This document shows, one piece after another, positions 4,345 to 26,072 of a DNA stretch of 48,497 bases. Made by a program: the position numbers and the translations under genes. The DNA comes from a virus. The notes beneath the pieces were generated by a model, which was not told the origin of the DNA, made no database searches, and saw nothing but the letters and a program-made list of their open reading frames with translations. The stretch lies in IMG/VR virus record IMGVR_UViG_3300041402_000598, positions 1-48,497 of that record; one strand, given 5' to 3'. How positions within the stretch are numbered: position 1 is the stretch's first letter; every line of letters starts with the position of its first letter.

Positions 4345-4583
4345 GCCCACACCCGACCCCACAGCGACAGAGGTGCCCCCGTAGCCGGGTATCCGGCAGC
4401 GTCGAGCGACGCGATGATCTGGTGGACCCGCCGCCACCGCGCAGCGATCTGGCGACGCAGTTGCAGCGTCCACTCAGCGGGCAGCAAACCGTGTGTATCA
4501 ACGAGTCGCCGCAGCTCGACACCGTTCTCCCGCGTGAGCCGTGCCACGGAGGTGGCGAGCTGTCGTGATTCGTTCTTGTTCAT
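4341..4583 (-). CDS. Hypothetical 80-residue helical protein
   Basis: A basic, helix-rich protein (RLTRENGVELRRLVDTHGLL, RRQIAARWRRVHQIIASLDAAGY) of unknown function. The ATG at 4583 follows the conserved 62-base leader (4581-4642), whose minus-strand end GGTAAGGT is a plausible ribosome-binding site. It is followed by a GTGA-overlapping gene. Confidence 0.65.
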   Translation of the reverse strand: MNKNESRQLATSVARLTRENGVELRRLVDTHGLLPAEWTLQLRRQIAARWRRVHQIIASLDAAGYPATGAPLSLWGRVWA

Positions 4584-4642
4584 ACCTTACCCATCGGCAC
4601 GCGGCGCCACAGGTTGAGGCCCGTTACAGGCCCCAGCTGCGC
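4581..4642 (-). promoter_or_regulatory. Conserved 62-base leader, copy 1
   Basis: The leader aligns without gaps to 5822-5883 at roughly three quarters identity, with blocks TCAACCTGTG and CGTGCCGATGGGTA shared exactly and both copies ending in GTATGAAC at a gene start. The stretch 4584-4679 otherwise holds no convincing gene. A shared promoter, operator or 5' leader for two genes of the block is the simplest reading. Confidence 0.5.
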
Positions 4643-4679: not shown

Positions 4680-4901
4680 TCATGGTACTTGAGTCACCAC
4701 ACCACACCACTCGCCGAGGATTCGCTCGTGCTCGCCCCTCGCAGTGTCAGAGTCGTCGAACGACACGAATGAGATATACCTGCCAGTTCCGACCGCCACG
4801 TAGTCCTTGGTACCCAGTTCCGGGTTGGCTTGGAACAGCTGCACACTCGTGATCGTGCTGGCGAGGATGGAGCAGGTGTCACTGATTTTGATGATAGTCA
4901 C
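4680..4901 (-). CDS. Hypothetical 73-residue protein in a repeat-linked gene set
   Basis: It starts with GTG inside the 3' end of linker copy 1 (GTGACTATC...). The sequence (ITSVQLFQANPELGTKDYVAVGTGRYISFVSFDDSD) alternates strand-forming residues and suggests a small beta domain. No family is recognised. It is the last of three genes whose starts are supplied by the same linker. Confidence 0.6.
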   Translation of the reverse strand: MTIIKISDTCSILASTITSVQLFQANPELGTKDYVAVGTGRYISFVSFDDSDTARGEHERILGEWCGVVTQVP

Positions 4902-4943
4902 ACCGCCGAAGCCCCGCTGCGGCGAGGCCGAACGGGGCTACTT
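4895..4943 (-). repeat. 49-base gene linker with hairpin, copy 1
   Basis: This 49-base element is identical to 5183-5231. On the minus strand it begins with the stop (TAG) of the gene at 4938 and ends with the GTG start of the gene at 4901. Its arms AGCCCCG (4939-4933) and CGGGGCT (4916-4910) form a 7-base-pair hairpin. The GGGG that could serve as ribosome-binding site is inside the stem. A loop sequence CGCCG can also pair with CGGCG just before the start codon. The design suggests translational control or coupling. Confidence 0.7.
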
Positions 4944-5189
4944 TCCGACGATCTGAGTGACCAGCCGAATGGGGTCGGCGAACTCATGGGTGAAAACGGG
5001 ACGGCCAATCGCCAGCTCGACCACCCTATGGAAATCGCCGAAACCCATACAGAGCTTACTCTGCCTGAGCTGGGCCAGAGCCACGTCTCTTGCAGGCGCG
5101 CCCTCCCACCATCCGGTTCCCGCCAGCTCAACAGCCTGCACGCGTGTCATTTCCGTGGCCATCCTATCCAATGCTTCTTGCGTAGTCAC
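4938..5189 (-). CDS. Hypothetical 83-residue protein in a repeat-linked gene set
   Basis: It begins with GTG at the end of linker copy 2. The helical N-terminal part (MTTQEALDRMATEMTRVQAVEL) is followed by GWWEGAPARDVALAQLRQ and a C-terminal segment with FGDFHRVVELAIGRPVFTHEF. No family is recognised. Its stop TAG is the first codon of linker copy 1. Confidence 0.65.
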   Translation of the reverse strand: MTTQEALDRMATEMTRVQAVELAGTGWWEGAPARDVALAQLRQSKLCMGFGDFHRVVELAIGRPVFTHEFADPIRLVTQIVGK

Positions 5190-5231
5190 ACCGCCGAAGC
5201 CCCGCTGCGGCGAGGCCGAACGGGGCTACTT
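5183..5231 (-). repeat. 49-base gene linker with hairpin, copy 2
   Basis: Identical over 49 bases to 4895-4943. It carries the stop TAG of the gene ending at 5226 and the GTG start of the gene beginning at 5189. The genes on each side are unrelated in sequence, so the linker has been duplicated or kept independently of them. Confidence 0.7.
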
Positions 5232-5522
5232 GAGGAACTTGGACGGCGTGAGCATCCTGAGGTCCAGGAGTTCGCCCTCGAACATCGCCACGATGATCTC
5301 TCGGGTACGGTCGTTCATCTGCCCCCCGATGTCCACCAGGCTCGTCGACCTCAAGATCTCTCCGGCGTTCCCGAACGGGACATGCGCAGCGTCCCGCGCG
5401 AGCATCACTGCCTCGTACAGCGCGTTTGGCTGGATTCGCTCGAGCTCGACACAGCACATTCGGGTCACCGCGACGAGGGCTTTGGAGTGTCTGACTCCGG
5501 TTCTGAGTGTTACGGTTTCCAC
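5226..5522 (-). CDS. Hypothetical 98-residue protein in a repeat-linked gene set
   Basis: The GTG start lies in linker copy 3 and the stop in copy 2. Helices are suggested by IQPNALYEAVMLARDAAHV and MNDRTREIIVAMFEGELLD. The CC pair at residues 23-24 is notable. I see no family assignment. Confidence 0.65.
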   Translation of the reverse strand: METVTLRTGVRHSKALVAVTRMCCVELERIQPNALYEAVMLARDAAHVPFGNAGEILRSTSLVDIGGQMNDRTREIIVAMFEGELLDLRMLTPSKFLK

Positions 5523-5562
5523 ACCACCGAAACCCCGCCGCGGCGAGGCCGAACGGGGTTAT
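5520..5562 (-). repeat. Gene linker with hairpin, copy 3 (diverged)
   Basis: This copy matches copies 1 and 2 except at a few positions. Two of the changes compensate each other: the left arm is AACCCCG and the right arm CGGGGTT, so a G-C pair became A-T and the stem is kept. CGGCGG before the start has become CGGTGG, which still pairs with the loop CGCCG through a G-U. The element supplies the GTG start of the gene at 5522 and follows the TGA of the gene at 5564. Confidence 0.7.
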
Positions 5563-5563
5563 G

Positions 5564-5824
5564 TCAGTCACATGCGGCTGACGCCACGTCGGACACTAGT
5601 TGGAGCGTCGCGGCTCGATCGCCCGACGCGTCTGCGGCGTTGAGTACTTCCTGGCCGGCCCACTGGTCGGGCGAGCCCCACGAGTTCCATCGACCCGTGT
5701 GGTCTCGTACCAGTGTGACTTCACCGCTGTACTGGGTGCCGTTGTCAAGCATAATGTCAACAACAGCGTCCATGCCCCCGGCGGTGCATGTGGATGGGGT
5801 TGCGAATGTCGCTTCGATGTTCAT
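5564..5824 (-). CDS. Hypothetical 86-residue protein
   Basis: It contains MDAVVDIMLDNGTQYSGEVTLVRDHTGRWNSWGSPDQW, a beta-hairpin-like pattern seen in small phage proteins of unknown role. A helical C-terminus follows. The ATG at 5824 lies directly behind leader copy 2. It is the first gene of the repeat-linked set. Confidence 0.65.
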   Translation of the reverse strand: MNIEATFATPSTCTAGGMDAVVDIMLDNGTQYSGEVTLVRDHTGRWNSWGSPDQWAGQEVLNAADASGDRAATLQLVSDVASAACD

Positions 5825-5883
5825 ACCCTACCCATCGGCACGGTCTGGCACAGGTTGAGACCCGTCGCGGTCCCGTGTTGCGC
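5822..5883 (-). promoter_or_regulatory. Conserved 62-base leader, copy 2
   Basis: Partner of 4581-4642, ending in the ATG of the gene at 5824. Since the other copy is largely non-coding, this one probably acts as a regulatory leader too, although the frame ending at 5828 runs through it. Confidence 0.5.
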
Positions 5884-7296: not shown

Positions 7297-7400
7297 CACC
7301 GGCTTCTCCCGTTGTTGCTAGTCATGATGCTGTAGACTATGCCTAGTTGTGCTGCGACAATGATGTGGACCATGAACGATGATGCGATGAAAAATGGCAT
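7296..7400 (-). CDS. Single-pass mini membrane protein, 34 residues
   Basis: The ATG at 7400 overlaps the stop of the pentapeptide-repeat gene (TAATG), and the stop overlaps the next ATG (TGATG). The peptide is one hydrophobic helix (FFIASSFMVHIIVAAQLGIV) with a polar basic tail (TSNNGRSR). The stop/start coupling on both sides supports it despite its size. Confidence 0.5.
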   Translation of the reverse strand: MPFFIASSFMVHIIVAAQLGIVYSIMTSNNGRSR

Positions 7401-7906
7401 TACTGTCTCCCTTGTTCGATGAGCTTAGCCTCATCTGGCGTCAATGTATATAGGATGGAACCCGGTCCGCCCGTTGCGTCGGGACCGAGGTTCGCTCCGT
7501 CGAGCGTGGCGCCGCATAGCATGGCGCCCCGCAGGTCCGCGCCCCGCAGGTCCGCGCCCGTCAGGTGCGCGCCCGTCAGGTGCGCGCCCGTCAGGTGCGC
7601 GCCCGTCAGGTCCGCGTCGCTCAGGTCCGCGTCGCTCAGGTCCGCGCCACGCAGGTTCGCGCCCGTCAGGTCCGCGTCGCGCAGGTCCGCGCCCCGCAGG
7701 TCCGCGCAGCGCAGGTCCGCGCCACGCAGGTTCGCGCCCGTCAGGTCCGCGCCCCGCAGGTCCGCGCCCGTCAGGTGCGCGCCCGTCAGGTCCGCGCCCC
7801 GCAAGTTCGCGCCACGCAAGTTCGCGTAGCTCAGGTCCGCGCGTGCCCCGGTACTTGGGTCCGCGAGCCAGTCTGCGTGCTGTTTCAGTATGTGATTCAG
7901 GTCCAT
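7400..7906 (-). CDS. Pentapeptide-repeat protein A
   Basis: A 168-residue protein. The N-terminal cap (MDLNHILKQHADWLADPSTG) is followed by about 22 A(D/N)Lxx units (ADLRGADLTGAHLTGADL...), the right-handed quadrilateral beta-helix fold. The C-terminal cap is shared with the gene at 17531 (LDGANLGPDATGGPGS, LTPDE). Qnr and MfpA proteins of this fold imitate DNA and bind gyrase, but most members have no known role. Related copies lie at 17531, 18881 and 20266; this is the only one outside the replication operon. Its start overlaps the small basic ORF at 7897-8043. Confidence 0.85.
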   Translation of the reverse strand: MDLNHILKQHADWLADPSTGARADLSYANLRGANLRGADLTGAHLTGADLRGADLTGANLRGADLRCADLRGADLRDADLTGANLRGADLSDADLSDADLTGAHLTGAHLTGAHLTGADLRGADLRGAMLCGATLDGANLGPDATGGPGSILYTLTPDEAKLIEQGRQ

Positions 7907-8405: not shown

Positions 8406-8687
8406 CTAGTTCGCTCGTCTGTCTGGTTCATCTTCGAGTTCATACCCTTCCATCGGGCAGCCCTCGGCGTGCTGGACACAGTCGGACTTTCTGGCAAATT
8501 CTGTGCAGCATCCACAATGGAGCCAAATGTCCCCGTGTAGATGTACCACGCCGTCCCGTAGCTTCTCGTTCTCAGTTTCGAACTCGCCGACCGCGTTGAT
8601 GGCGTCGGACACGAGTTTCTTCATGTCGTCCACGGTCATCGGCGTCAGAAACCGTTCCACCAGTTCATCGTGCTTGCTTTGTTTCAT
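8406..8687 (-). CDS. Zinc-finger-like protein with H-x3-CPM motif, 93 residues
   Basis: The N-terminal half is helical and partly coiled (MTVDDMKKLVSDAINAVGEFETENEKLRDG). The C-terminal half has HCGCC, a further C and HAEGCPME, likely ligating zinc. The start ATG at 8687 overlaps the last codons of the primase-helicase gene; a GTG lies one codon earlier. It is related to the proteins at 8232 and 13223 in the Cys/His module only. Confidence 0.65.
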   Translation of the reverse strand: MKQSKHDELVERFLTPMTVDDMKKLVSDAINAVGEFETENEKLRDGVVHLHGDIWLHCGCCTEFARKSDCVQHAEGCPMEGYELEDEPDRRAN

Positions 8688-10917
8688 CACTCGTCTCTCC
8701 AGTCGTCATCTGTGCTTTCTCGTATGCCGCGGCGTTCCCGCTCGCGGCTAGTGACCCGTCCAGGGTCCACAGCTCCGCTCGTCGCTCATCGGGTCGCACC
8801 ACCGCTCGGGTCCGCCCCCACCGTGTGTATCCTAGATTCGCCAGGATTTCACGCTGCGTGGATATCGCCAGTTTGCGGTGGTCCGCGCGCAGCATCGACA
8901 CGAACATTGTGCGCGAGATCCACCCGCCACGGAACCCCGGGCGGCCCTCGTCGATCGCGTCGAGCACTTCCTGTTCCACGGGGCTACGGTTTGCCTCGCG
9001 GAACTCATCGTAGCTCGATGTCACGGGCGCGCGCATGCACGTCGTGGCGGGGTTCAGCTCGTCCGGTATGGCGTACGTCGCCAGGTAGTCGTGGACGATC
9101 GCGTACCCTTCGATTCGGAGCCACCGGTACAGTTCCGGGAAGTAGTCGCCACCCATGCCATCGCGGGCCAAGTGGACCTTCCTCTGCTGGGCGGTGAAAA
9201 ACACAGCGAACCGCCGGTCTCCCTCGGTGGTGCGGATCGCGTCACGGTGGTTCGAGTTGAGTATGAAATTCGCGCAGATCCGGGCCATCTCCTCGTCACT
9301 CTGCATCGCGCGGATCCCGATGACGTCCCCCGTGATCATCGGTTTCAGAGCTTCGAGGATCTCCGTTTTATCGGACGGTACATAGATGTCCTCGATACCG
9401 ATGAGGATCTTGCCCTGTAGCCACGCGTTGAACTTCGAGCCGAGGTCGTGGGCCTGTGGTGTGTGAGCGTACCTGGACCCGATTGCCTCCATTAGCACGC
9501 GGGTGAGTAGCGTTTTACCGTTACCCTCGACGCCCTGGAGCAGTGGCGCCCACTGAAACTTGACGCCCTTATACTGCACCACGGCGGCCATGTACGCCAG
9601 GATGATGCTTCGGTCGCGGTCGTCGGGGAGCAGCCGCGCCAGGTGGTCGAGGAACCGGGTCGGGTCGCCAGCGTGGCGGGGCGTTTCGACAGGCCGGTAC
9701 GAGTTCGCGTGAGTCAGTCCGCCGTAGCTGAGCGGCTTATCCCACTGCGCCGTCGGGTCGAAGCACACCTGGTCAGCCACAGGGCACTGGAACGACAGCG
9801 ACTCAGTGAATGCCTCCCACGGCTTGCGTGTGCTTCCGGTGCCCGTGTCGTCGCGGGCGAACTCGTACGACGGCAGGACGGCGTTGAACTGCTGCATCGA
9901 TAGCAGCTGCCCCGACGGCATCATCACGCGGTTGCGGCTGATCACGTAGATGCACCCGGCGAACAGTTTCAACTGTTCTTGTACCGCGAGGAACTGAAGT
10001 CCACTGCGCACCTCGCCGCCAGCAGCCGGCTCGGGCGCGACGTAGTCGTAGACCTTCGCCGTGCGTGCCACGACGAACCCGACCGTCAGCGGCAGGTACC
10101 GCGCCTCGTCCCATTTGTCGCGGACGAGCTCGCTGCGACGCATGAGGCGGACGATCCGCTCGCAGTCGTTGCCTGTCCAGAACGCCAGGTGTTTCGCCAG
10201 CGCTGCGTCCGCTGACGAGCAGTCGAAGTCCCGAGACGGGTCTGGGTATGCCTCGGCGAGTTTGTCGACGTCGCGCGTCCAGAGCGCCTCGAACATCGAG
10301 TCCGAGAATAGGCCACCCGATGCGCGCGCCTTGGTGATGAGCACGTCGTCGTCCGCGGGGCCGGTCCAGCCGTCACATGGACCGTCGGTCCAGTCTGCTG
10401 CGTCGGCCCGCTCGCCGGCCCGGGCCACCGGTGGGAAGTACTGCGCCGCGAGCACGTGCAGCGCGACGGTGTGGTCCGTGTCGCAGTCACCCTGCGCGCC
10501 GGAGCCGATCGCCGCGAACCGGCCCGCCGTGTACAGCTCGCCACCGATCGCGCCACACCGGACGCCGTGGTCCGGCCGGGGCCCCGAGTATCGCCCAAAC
10601 ACGTGGAGCCCGTCGCCGCTGTGGCTGAGCTCCACTTCCGCCCCGGCGAACCGCTGGACCAGCGCGGCGGCATGTGGCTGACAGCCCTCCGGACCGACAC
10701 AGTAGTCGAGATCCAGGAAGAAATACGGGTCGTCGACGGTGAACACGAACCCGATCATGTGCCCCGTGGCGACTGCGTCGGCGTGACTCATCCACTGCGC
10801 CGGGTCCTGCGAGTCCGCGCGGCGGCCGGTCCGCGGGTCGAACGGCACCTTGGCGGGCTTCGGGTCCCCGGCTCGGGGTTCCTCGCGCCACACGATCCAT
10901 TGGTTGAGGTGTTTCAT
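8665..10917 (-). CDS. Primase-helicase (AEP-like primase + D5/DUF5906-type helicase)
   Basis: A 750-residue replication protein. The N-terminal third (NQWIVWREEPRAGDPKPAKV, FDPRTGRRADS and the acidic FFLDLDYC near residue 70) matches the archaeo-eukaryotic primase (prim-pol) domain of phage primases. The C-terminal part is an SF3-like DUF5906 helicase: Walker A GVEGNGKTLL near residue 460, Walker B-like GIEDIYVP, and sensor FILNSNHRD. It would unwind the fork and make primers. The ATG at 10917 overlaps the upstream stop (ATGA). It is the central enzyme of the leftward early block and complements the family A polymerase at 20556. Confidence 0.85.
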   Translation of the reverse strand: MKHLNQWIVWREEPRAGDPKPAKVPFDPRTGRRADSQDPAQWMSHADAVATGHMIGFVFTVDDPYFFLDLDYCVGPEGCQPHAAALVQRFAGAEVELSHSGDGLHVFGRYSGPRPDHGVRCGAIGGELYTAGRFAAIGSGAQGDCDTDHTVALHVLAAQYFPPVARAGERADAADWTDGPCDGWTGPADDDVLITKARASGGLFSDSMFEALWTRDVDKLAEAYPDPSRDFDCSSADAALAKHLAFWTGNDCERIVRLMRRSELVRDKWDEARYLPLTVGFVVARTAKVYDYVAPEPAAGGEVRSGLQFLAVQEQLKLFAGCIYVISRNRVMMPSGQLLSMQQFNAVLPSYEFARDDTGTGSTRKPWEAFTESLSFQCPVADQVCFDPTAQWDKPLSYGGLTHANSYRPVETPRHAGDPTRFLDHLARLLPDDRDRSIILAYMAAVVQYKGVKFQWAPLLQGVEGNGKTLLTRVLMEAIGSRYAHTPQAHDLGSKFNAWLQGKILIGIEDIYVPSDKTEILEALKPMITGDVIGIRAMQSDEEMARICANFILNSNHRDAIRTTEGDRRFAVFFTAQQRKVHLARDGMGGDYFPELYRWLRIEGYAIVHDYLATYAIPDELNPATTCMRAPVTSSYDEFREANRSPVEQEVLDAIDEGRPGFRGGWISRTMFVSMLRADHRKLAISTQREILANLGYTRWGRTRAVVRPDERRAELWTLDGSLAASGNAAAYEKAQMTTGETSDETKQAR

Positions 10918-11099
10918 ATATTGCACCGAGCAAGCAGCACCAACGGGCCGACACCCCAGTAGGAGAGGCACAGGTCGTACGGCTCGACGGAGTGGCCCCA
11001 TTTCCAATGGGTCCGGCATACTCCGAAATGCACGGACCAGTCACCACAGTGTGCGCTCACGAGCCCCGCGTACTCCTTCCACCAGAAGTCGAAAGTCAC
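10914..11099 (-). CDS. Hypothetical 61-residue aromatic-rich protein
   Basis: The GTG at 11099 overlaps the upstream stop (GTGA), the usual junction here; an ATG at 11177 would add 26 residues but overlap the upstream gene by 82 bases. The protein is rich in Trp, His and Cys (FDFWWKEYAGLVSAHCGDW, CRTHWKWGHSVEPYDLCLSY). Metal binding is possible, but no family is recognised. Confidence 0.55.
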   Translation of the reverse strand: MTFDFWWKEYAGLVSAHCGDWSVHFGVCRTHWKWGHSVEPYDLCLSYWGVGPLVLLARCNI

Positions 11100-17854: not shown

Positions 17855-18888
17855 GATTTCGTCCGTCGAGCGCGCACCGCTGGTGGGGCGGCGGGTGCAC
17901 GGGCTCCGTCCAGGCCGAGGCCGCTGTGCCGAGGCCGCCGTCGGGTGACGCAGCGACCGAAGGCACACGGCTCCACGATGTCGCTGCGTCGCTCCTGACC
18001 AGCGGATGTAACGACTGCGACCCCGACGACTGGGAGCAGGTTGGCGCGTACGTCGATGAGGTGCGGCGGCAGGTCGGTGACAGCGGTGATCTGCTGGACG
18101 TGGAATGCGACGTACTGTCCAGCGACCTGGGAATCAGCGGGACAATAGACGCGCGCACTAGGAGCAGCACAGGGCGAACGATCACGGATTTGAAGACCGG
18201 ACACCGGCCCGTCGAGGTGTTCGAGAATCGCCAGCTCCTTGTGTACGCGATATGTGACGTCGACCGCGGCGCCACCAAACTCGTGATCGTCCAGCCAAAC
18301 GGGTGGCACCGCGACGGGCCGGTCCGGCGGTGGACCGTTCCGGACCTGGCTCCGTATCGTGCCGATCTGGTACGCGTCATGGACGAGGCGCGCAACAGCC
18401 CGCGGCTCGTGGCGACGCCGGAAAACTGCACCTACTGTGCCGCCGTGACGTCGTGCGAGGCGGCGCGGGCCGTCACGCTGGGAGGCGCGGACATGGCGCT
18501 GAAACACACGGGTTTGCTGCCACCCGAGGCGATCAAGTCGGAGCTCGTGACGCTCCGGACGACGTTGAAGCTGACGCAGATACGGCTCGATGCGCTCGAA
18601 GCCGAAGCGGAGCAACGGGTCCGAAGCGGCGAACGGATCCCCGGCTGCGGCATGCGTCCCGGGCGGGGCGGGTCGCTCGCGTGGTCCCGTGACGAGGCCC
18701 AAATCCGTGCCATTTGTGGGATGGTGGGCGTCGACCCGACCCGGACCAAATTGATCACGCCGACCCAAGCTGAAAAGGCTGGAGTTCCACCGGAGCTCGT
18801 GGCATCCATGTCGACACGTGGGCCCACCGGTATGGTTCTGTCCACAGACGTAGCGGCGGACGCCGCGGAATTGTTCGCAGATGATTGA
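17851..18888 (+). CDS. DUF2800-like RecB/Cas4-type protein
   Basis: 345 residues. The N-terminus has the family signature (RPSSAHRWWGGGCTGSV...EGTRLHDVAASLL). The middle carries a RecB-type core: SGTIDARTRS (metal-binding Asp), TITDLKTGHRPVEVFENRQL (D-x-K) and LLVYA. A C-terminal CTYC...C cluster could hold an iron-sulfur or zinc centre as in Cas4. DUF2800 genes commonly sit beside DUF2815 and polymerase genes in phages and may act as exonucleases in recombination. GTG start overlapping the previous stop. Confidence 0.75.
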   Translation: MRFRPSSAHRWWGGGCTGSVQAEAAVPRPPSGDAATEGTRLHDVAASLLTSGCNDCDPDDWEQVGAYVDEVRRQVGDSGDLLDVECDVLSSDLGISGTIDARTRSSTGRTITDLKTGHRPVEVFENRQLLVYAICDVDRGATKLVIVQPNGWHRDGPVRRWTVPDLAPYRADLVRVMDEARNSPRLVATPENCTYCAAVTSCEAARAVTLGGADMALKHTGLLPPEAIKSELVTLRTTLKLTQIRLDALEAEAEQRVRSGERIPGCGMRPGRGGSLAWSRDEAQIRAICGMVGVDPTRTKLITPTQAEKAGVPPELVASMSTRGPTGMVLSTDVAADAAELFADD

Positions 18889-19453
18889 CTTAAAACACAT
18901 ACTGGAGGAGCACGCAGCCTGGCTCGCGGACAGCAGTACCGGGGCCCGCGCGAACCTGAGCGACGCGAACCTGCGCGACGCGAACCTGAGTCGCGCGAAC
19001 CTGAGCGACGCGAACCTGAGTCGCGCGAACCTGAGCGACGCGAACCTGCGCGACGCGAACCTGAGCGACGCGAACCTGCGCGACGCGAACCTGCGCGACG
19101 CGAACCTGCGTCACGCGCACCTGAGTCACGCGGACCTGACGGGCGCGATCCTGACGTGCGCGTGCCTGCGTGGCGCGGGCCTGCGTGGCGCGCACCTGAG
19201 TCACGCGGACCTGACGGGCGCGATCCTGACGGGCGCGGGCCTGAGTGGCGCGGGCCTGAGTGGCGCGATCCTGACGGGCGCGTGCCTGCGTGGCGCGGAC
19301 CTGCGTCACGCGGACCTGCGTGGCGCGCACCTGCGTCACGCGAACCTCCGTGACGCGGACCTCCGTGACGCGGACCTGAGCTACGCGAACCTGACGGGCG
19401 CGGACCTGACGCGCGCGAACCTGAAGAATACAATCGGATACAATCATGACTGA
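18881..19453 (+). CDS. Pentapeptide-repeat protein C
   Basis: 190 residues. Cap MIDLKHILEEHAAWLADSST, then about 30 consecutive pentapeptides (ANLSDANLRDANLSRANLSD...), the longest array of the four, ending [11 protein letters not shown] without the C-terminal cap of proteins A and B. At DNA level it is a 15-base tandem array, so its length is probably unstable over time. It overlaps the DUF2800-like stop by 8 bases and the DUF2815-like start by 8. Confidence 0.85.
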   Translation: MIDLKHILEEHAAWLADSSTGARANLSDANLRDANLSRANLSDANLSRANLSDANLRDANLSDANLRDANLRDANLRHAHLSHADLTGAILTCACLRGAGLRGAHLSHADLTGAILTGAGLSGAGLSGAILTGACLRGADLRHADLRGAHLRHANLRDADLRDADLSYANLTGADLTRANLKNTIGYNHD

Positions 19454-20192: not shown

Positions 20193-20287
20193 TACTCAAC
20201 CCGGCGCTAAGGTACATATGCGAGGCACTGTTGCTCTCGCTTCTGATACTAGCGGGGTACATCATATGGATATCATTAACATACTGA
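20189..20287 (+). CDS. Single-pass mini membrane protein, 32 residues
   Basis: The GTG at 20189 overlaps the DUF2815-like stop (GTGA). The frame runs to a TGA inside pentapeptide gene D and encodes [20 protein letters not shown] followed by [11 protein letters not shown], a clear transmembrane helix. The precise coupling and hydrophobicity argue for a real, very small gene. It overlaps the start of gene D by 22 bases. Confidence 0.5.
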
Positions 20288-20556
20288 AACAGCACGGGGA
20301 CTGGCTCGCGGACAGCAGTACCGGGGCCCGCGCGAACCTGCGCTGCGCGTACCTGAGTGGCGCGAACCTGCGTGGCGCGGACCTGACGGACGCGGACCTG
20401 AGTGGCGCGGACCTGAGCTGCGCGAACCTGCGGGGCGCGGACCTGAGTGGCGCGGACCTGAGCTGCGCGAACCTGCGGGGCGCGGACCTGCGCGACGCGG
20501 ACCTGCGCGACGCGTACATGAGCGGCGTCAAAGTATCATCCGAAACTAGGTTCTGA
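20266..20556 (+). CDS. Pentapeptide-repeat protein D
   Basis: 96 residues. ATG 20266 is chosen because it gives the cap [19 protein letters not shown], nearly the same as in proteins A and C. About 13 repeats follow ([20 protein letters not shown]...). It ends [11 protein letters not shown] and overlaps the polymerase ATG (TGATG), so translation of the two is probably coupled. Confidence 0.8.
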
Positions 20557-25570: not shown

Positions 25571-25788
25571 CTGACCAGCACCATCGCACGGATCGTCGTG
25601 GGCTTGAGGGCCGCGAGCACCGCAAGCTGCAATCGGGACGCTTCGGGCATGTCGTGCGGCACGGCCTCGGCCATACCCGTGTGGTTCCAGGTGAGACGCC
25701 AAGCCATCGGGGATCCGGTGCGAAAATCGAGCAACATACCGGAAACATCGACACGCGCGCCGGCGGGTTGAGCCCCGTAACGGGACAT
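25567..25788 (-). CDS. Hypothetical 73-residue protein
   Basis: The start shares bases with the TAA of the holin-like gene (TAATG). Beta-rich N-terminal half (VDVSGMLLDFRTGSPMAWRL) and helical C-terminus (EASRLQLAVLAALKPTTIRA). Unknown function. Confidence 0.6.
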   Translation of the reverse strand: MSRYGAQPAGARVDVSGMLLDFRTGSPMAWRLTWNHTGMAEAVPHDMPEASRLQLAVLAALKPTTIRAMVLVR

Positions 25789-26072
25789 TACAGAGCGTTA
25801 CGCCGCGTGCGCCAGTAGTCCCGCTCGGCCTCGCGGTGCGCACCCTGTGCCTGCCACTCCTCAGCCTCGCGCTGGCGCTGAAGATCCATTGCGGTCATGT
25901 GCTTGACGATCGCCGCCGTCAATTTGTACAGAACGAGTGCCACGACCCCCAGCGCGGACGTTGTCGACCCGTGCATGAGCACGTCCTGGGACTGCGACGA
26001 TACCGCGGCGATTGGGGCGGCTGCGACGGCGACGGTTGCTGCGATCACTACTGGGTCAAAGGGCACGTTCAT
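25788..26072 (-). CDS. Putative holin or inner spanin
   Basis: 94 residues with two hydrophobic segments (about 8-26 and 38-56: VVIAATVAVAAAPIAAVSS and GVVALVLYKLTAAIVKH). A long, highly charged C-terminal helix follows (RQREAEEWQAQGAHREAERD). That is the arrangement of many class II holins and also resembles an inner spanin. It follows the tail-spike gene, a usual place for lysis genes, whereas the endolysin is at 3698. Confidence 0.55.
   Translation of the reverse strand: MNVPFDPVVIAATVAVAAAPIAAVSSQSQDVLMHGSTTSALGVVALVLYKLTAAIVKHMTAMDLQRQREAEEWQAQGAHREAERDYWRTRRNAL

What the first reader, a model, noticed from the sequence alone, without database searches (positions are those of the whole stretch)
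4895..5562. Three-copy RNA-hairpin gene linker that carries the stop of one gene and the start of the next
A 49-base element is repeated exactly at 4895-4943 and 5183-5231 and in diverged form at 5520-5562. In each case it supplies the GTG start of the downstream gene, and in two cases also the stop codon of the upstream gene. The genes between copies are unrelated to each other. The hairpin arm change G to A is matched by C to T on the opposite arm in copy 3, which is evidence for selection on RNA pairing. A loop CGCCG can pair with the region before the start codon, giving a pseudoknot or a switch between open and closed ribosome access. This looks like a modular translational control element and could be a new phage riboregulator.
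Basis: partly seen in the sequence, partly recalled or inferred. Interest (0 to 1): 0.82.

Follow-up and report, generated by a model that had tools for sequence, protein, structure and literature searches.

The report
Phage RNA hairpins between adjacent genes
Many uncultured phages, including this one, place the same kind of RNA hairpin at a fixed distance between the stop of one gene and the start of the next; it looks like a reusable control element for starting protein synthesis, and no catalogue or paper I could search describes it.

Summary
On the minus strand, three gene junctions carry a GC-rich hairpin whose 3' base lies exactly 9 nt before a GTG start; two copies are identical over 49 nt. 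Pattern scans and a covariance model found about 45 further copies in about 21 other uncultured virus contigs, including a 618-kb one. Nearly all follow one plan: stop (mostly TAG), ~21 nt, bulged hairpin, 9-nt linker, ATG/GTG. The RNA fold is supported by loops that were not part of the search (z -13) and by strong covariation (0.424 versus 0.112 shuffled). Most relatives add a lower stem that pairs the linker before the start with upstream sequence (p 5e-5); two of the three window copies lack it. Downstream genes are mostly unrelated. There is no Rfam match, no match in isolate phages by BLAST, and none in about 490 sampled bacterial genomes. Mycobacteriophage start-associated sequences are analogous but do not match. 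Best reading: an undescribed family of mRNA elements that gate translation of the next gene. Whether a ribosome, a binding protein or an RNase reads it is open.

The parts
4895..4943 (-). Copy 1 of the linker: TAG stop 4938-4940, hairpin 4911-4938, 9-nt linker 4902-4910, GTG start 4899-4901
   Evidence: model R1 E 6e-11
5183..5231 (-). Copy 2: TAG stop 5226-5228, hairpin 5199-5226, linker 5190-5198, GTG start 5187-5189; identical to copy 1 over 49 nt
   Evidence: R1 E 5e-10
5516..5566 (-). Copy 3: TGA stop 5564-5566, hairpin 5532-5559, linker 5523-5531, GTG start 5520-5522; G-C to A-U at the stem base
   Evidence: R1 E 1e-9
5564..5824 (-). Gene upstream of copy 3 (86 aa, no family)
5226..5522 (-). 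Gene between copies 3 and 2 (98 aa, no Pfam family)
4938..5189 (-). Gene between copies 2 and 1 (83 aa, DUF7736 domain, E 4e-9)
4680..4901 (-). Gene started by copy 1 (73 aa, no family)

Best explanation
The element is a cis-acting RNA hairpin in the junctions of a polycistronic phage mRNA that gates translation initiation of the next gene. Shown by sequence: a bulged hairpin conserved through compensatory changes, with fixed spacing to a start codon (9 nt) and to the upstream stop (about 21 nt in most copies; -1 to +4 nt in the window), in front of unrelated genes. Shown in silico: the linker, and in most relatives the start, are tied up in structure. Inferred: the fold keeps the start closed until something opens it. 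In the window the stop sits in or just before the hairpin, so a ribosome terminating on the upstream gene would occlude the 5' arm and free the linker and GTG (translational coupling by RNA unfolding). In the majority form the hairpin lies just beyond the terminating ribosome, so opening would need another factor (a phage RNA-binding protein, a helicase, or cleavage).
For: Copies: R1 matches 23 of 28 contigs tested, up to 9 per contig. About 16 of these copies were not found by the seed patterns; most have another stem sequence but the same start position. Structure: the inner loop, not used in selection, extends the hairpin in 28 of 28 copies, sum z -13; 7 of 11 pairs show changes on both sides and the covariation score is 0.424 versus 0.112 +- 0.026 shuffled. 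Lower stem: own partners pair better than swapped ones, z -4.1, p 5e-5. Geometry: stop to hairpin is 18-24 nt in 33 of 42 copies; the stop is TAG in 29 of 42 versus 101 of 319 in these contigs, p 4e-6. Linker and start are less accessible than other starts in the same contigs (p 7e-4 and 6e-3). RNA unfolding is an accepted mode of coupling (PMC12548453).
Against: No RNA or translation data exist. Window copies 2 and 3 have no lower stem, so closure there rests on the hairpin alone. No well-spaced Shine-Dalgarno sequence: the G-rich linker abuts the start. In the long form the terminating ribosome should not reach the hairpin, so simple coupling does not explain the majority. G-U pairs are scarce in A4, so a structure in single-stranded DNA is not ruled out. 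The model also scores ordinary terminators at up to 39 bits, so start adjacency is needed to tell members apart.
Confidence: 0.58

Rival explanations
1. It is an mRNA processing site: an RNase (III, E or Y type) cuts at the hairpin or the U-rich bulge 3' of it, leaving a protective 3' hairpin on the upstream mRNA and a nearly leaderless mRNA (about 5 nt before the start) for the downstream gene.
For: Long bulged stem, conserved UUU/UUUC bulge directly 3' of the GC stem in most relatives, position exactly between genes, and a start without a normally spaced Shine-Dalgarno sequence.
Against: The stem in the window is only about 13 bp, short for RNase III. The linker before the start is itself conserved and paired, which pure processing does not require. 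R1 finds nothing in T7, which has known intergenic RNase III sites.
Confidence: 0.17
2. It is a transcription attenuator: a weak terminator hairpin between genes that sets polarity and is passed with antitermination.
For: The core GCCCCG..CGGGGCTT looks like common terminators, and real terminators match the model weakly.
Against: No U-tract and not scored as a terminator; the start codon sits 9 nt after the stem and is tied to it; linker and lower stem are conserved.
Confidence: 0.1
3. It is a DNA-level linker: a short homology block or hairpin recombination site that lets phages swap small genes as cassettes, with expression signals carried along.
For: Copies 1 and 2 are identical including loop and flanks; copies within one contig resemble each other more than copies elsewhere; the genes between are unrelated; G-U pairs are rare.
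Against: Compensatory pairs, the lower stem and fixed spacing to both stop and start argue for a function in the mRNA. Between phages the sequence diverges while the fold stays, which is poor for homologous recombination.
Confidence: 0.12

Closest known systems
Start-associated sequences (SAS) and extended SAS of cluster K mycobacteriophages (Pope et al. 2011, PMC3203893)
   Same: Repeated many times per phage genome, directly upstream of start codons of unrelated small genes; ESAS adds inverted repeats; a role in translation initiation was proposed there too.
   Different: SAS is the fixed 13-mer GGGATAGGAGCCC, and its authors found little support for an mRNA hairpin. A cluster K phage with 18 SAS has no R1 match at any of them. 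Here the fold, not the sequence, is conserved.
Translational coupling by RNA unfolding (f1 VII-IX, MS2 coat-lysis; review PMC12548453)
   Same: Structure closes the downstream start and upstream translation opens it; a stop near the structure.
   Different: Known cases are single junctions; here one structural module recurs at many unrelated junctions, with a fixed gap between stop and hairpin in most copies.
Coat-protein operator hairpins of RNA phages such as MS2 (from memory)
   Same: Bulged hairpin at a gene start that controls initiation.
   Different: Here many genes per DNA phage, start outside the hairpin, variable loop, no known binding protein.
T7 intergenic RNase III sites and T4 promoter/stem-loop cassettes (PeSLs) (from memory)
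   Same: Hairpins between phage genes; PeSLs are linked to gene shuffling.
   Different: No promoter, no U-tract, start codon at a fixed 9 nt; no model match in T7.

Membership tests
Cluster K SAS/ESAS | 13-bp GGGATAGGAGCCC a few nt before the start | tested here: not met
   No exact copy in the window and none at these starts; the cluster K phage Nibb has 18 copies, none matched by R1
Cluster K SAS/ESAS | Repeated at starts of unrelated genes in one phage | tested here: met
   3 copies in the window, up to 9 in other contigs, mostly unrelated downstream proteins
Any Rfam 15 family | Covariance model match | tested here: not met
   No match at gathering score; only chance-level hits at relaxed threshold
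Intrinsic terminator | GC-rich hairpin followed by a U-tract | tested here: not met
   Not scored by the terminator scan; only 2-3 U follow the stem
Translational coupling by RNA unfolding | Structure that ties up the downstream start region | tested here: met
   Lower P(unpaired) of linker and start than at other starts; in silico only
Translational coupling by RNA unfolding | Downstream translation depends on upstream translation | not testable with these tools
   Needs reporter fusions or ribosome profiling
RNase III processing site | Cleavage in the hairpin in vivo | not testable with these tools
   No RNA ends available
   Own versus swapped partners p 0.20

The most novel reading that the evidence does not exclude
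A phage-wide RNA regulon: one structural operator placed before many unrelated genes, read by a phage-encoded factor that opens or cuts all of them together, so that a DNA phage switches a gene set at the level of translation rather than transcription.
Probability: 0.2. Interest if true: 0.85.

Novelty: new variant of a known kind. Interest (0 to 1): 0.62.

Why it matters
Structured RNA elements that recur at many gene starts of one DNA phage are rare, and this family appears absent from isolates in the searched collection. If it gates translation, it gives uncultured phages, including a very large one, a gene-by-gene control layer that can be tested with simple reporter fusions. It also gives annotators a marker for true starts and stops of small phage genes.

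Tried and rejected
Exact 19-mer of the hairpin: one hit in IMG/VR, inside a coding sequence, chance. Protein searches with the terminase (search for related loci) and with the DUF7736 protein gave no close relatives. BLASTN of the element against isolate phages gave only partial matches, none of those inspected at a gene start with this arrangement. Genome-contig scan: 5 matches, terminator-like or without a convincing gene start. Loop-linker pseudoknot: not supported. Patterns based on the TCGACCC upstream motif added no clear new members. Literature searches found nothing that describes this family, and those for T7 RNase III sites and PeSLs found no held paper.

Full report
What is in the window. 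The window is a complete IMG/VR virus record of 48,497 bp with a tailed-phage gene set: terminase GpA, lambda-type portal, S49 peptidase, Mu-like Gp48, tape measure and others. Nothing in the isolate-phage collection is close at the DNA level (window 1-24000), and its terminase is at most about 41% identical to isolates. The repeat lies between four small minus-strand genes. Copies 1 and 2 are identical over 49 nt; copy 3 is 82% identical. Read on the minus strand the element is: AAG TAG-CCCCGUU-CGGC-CUC-GCCG-C-AGCGGGGCU-UCGGCGGU-GUG. ViennaRNA folds it as 9 outer pairs, a one-base bulge, 4 inner pairs and a 3-nt loop in the three longer contexts tested; one short excerpt of copy 3, cut to 45 nt, folded otherwise.

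Relatives. A scan of IMG/VR with the 3' half and start (CGGGGYTTCGGYGGTGTG) hit 13 contigs; two of them, L004 and L007, had the same arrangement before a GTG start, and L007 had five copies. Relaxed patterns added L020 and L021 and then a larger set. These scans also return ordinary terminators, so members were kept only if an open reading frame starts at the RTG. A covariance model built from 28 copies matched 23 of 28 whole contigs, with up to 9 matches in a 618-kb contig. It recovered copies that the patterns could not see, with other stem sequences: CCCCCG..CGGGGG, GGCTCG..CGGGCC, GCCGG..CCGGC, GAGCCCG..CGGGCTT.

RNA structure. The patterns fixed only the stem base. The unselected inner loop nevertheless extends the hairpin in 28 of 28 copies; the summed energy is -582 against -414 +- 13 kcal/mol for shuffled loops. 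In 17 copies of one length, 7 of 11 pairs have changes on both sides and 93% of cells pair; no shuffle of 500 reaches the covariation score. When the 3' base opposite the bulge changes from A to U, the bulge moves from A to U on the 5' side so that exactly one base stays bulged. In most relatives sequence upstream of the hairpin (often TCGACCCC) pairs with the linker (often GGGGU) just before the start; own partners beat swapped ones (z -4.1, p 5e-5; one copy per contig, median z -3.0). Window copy 1 can form such a pairing through the end of the upstream gene; copies 2 and 3 cannot.

Geometry. The hairpin end lies 9 nt before the start in nearly all copies. The stop of the upstream gene lies 18-24 nt before the hairpin in 33 of 42 copies, median 21. 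The window (-1, -1, +4 nt) and L060 (+6 nt) form a short class. The stop is TAG in 29 of 42 cases against 101 of 319 genes in the same loci (p 4e-6). Downstream proteins are almost all unrelated; only two small groups share homology. The window shares genes with L059 (the contig of L007) and L121, so phages related to this one also carry the element, at other genes.

Specificity. No Rfam family matches. A scan of 84,980 bacterial and archaeal species genomes gave five matches, none a convincing gene start. Among about 490 randomly drawn Pseudomonadota and Actinomycetota genomes only the two genomes chosen because they had matched that scan matched again (strict filters and few candidates scored per genome, so weak copies could be missed). 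BLASTN with three representative copies found no isolate phage with the arrangement. The model gives no strong match in a cluster K mycobacteriophage with 18 SAS or in T7.

How it may work. Starts with the element have a more stable local fold and less accessible linker and start codon than other starts in the same contigs, while the bases after the start are more open. I therefore think it gates initiation. In the window a terminating ribosome would cover the 5' arm, which fits the RNA-unfolding form of translational coupling (PMC12548453). In the majority class the stop-to-hairpin gap of about 21 nt seems just large enough that a terminating ribosome leaves the structure intact, which points to a separate opener or to cleavage. 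The ribosome footprint argument rests on general knowledge, not on a computation here. The same review notes that structure right after a stop codon tends to reduce coupling, which also fits insulation of neighbouring genes.

Limits. Everything here is sequence and prediction. Copy numbers depend on pattern seeds that share the GC stem base, so the true diversity of the family is probably underestimated. The lowest-scoring matches overlap in score with terminators. Hosts are unknown.

Noticed in passing
4577-4642 and 5818-5883 (minus); weaker 25731-25796: A second repeated leader: the two copies share CUCAACCUGUG and CGUGCCGAUGGGUARGGUAUGAACA directly at the ATG starts of the genes at 4583 and 5824, so the four-gene block is flanked by it. 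Not found in two related contigs.
   Followed up: partly
L059:12700-16351: A related phage contig carries five copies in a row before genes, two of them related proteins made of long CxDC repeats.
   Followed up: partly
7400-7906, 18881-19453, 20264-20527: Pentapeptide-repeat proteins encoded several times in the window, giving the long 15-nt-period repeats.
   Followed up: no
8665-11019: Replication protein with NrS-1 polymerase-type HBD and DUF5906 domains.
   Followed up: no
L087:6938, L129:6825, L161:298: The element sits at the start of orthologous genes in three related contigs, with different inner stem sequences that all still fold.
   Followed up: partly
L222-L225 (618-kb contig IMGVR_UViG_3300022719_000283): Several copies share the stem CCCCCGTACAGG..GCTGTCGGGGG with a variable tetraloop, and others GCCCCCGGCTG..CAGCGGGGGC, as if sub-families spread within this contig.
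   Followed up: no
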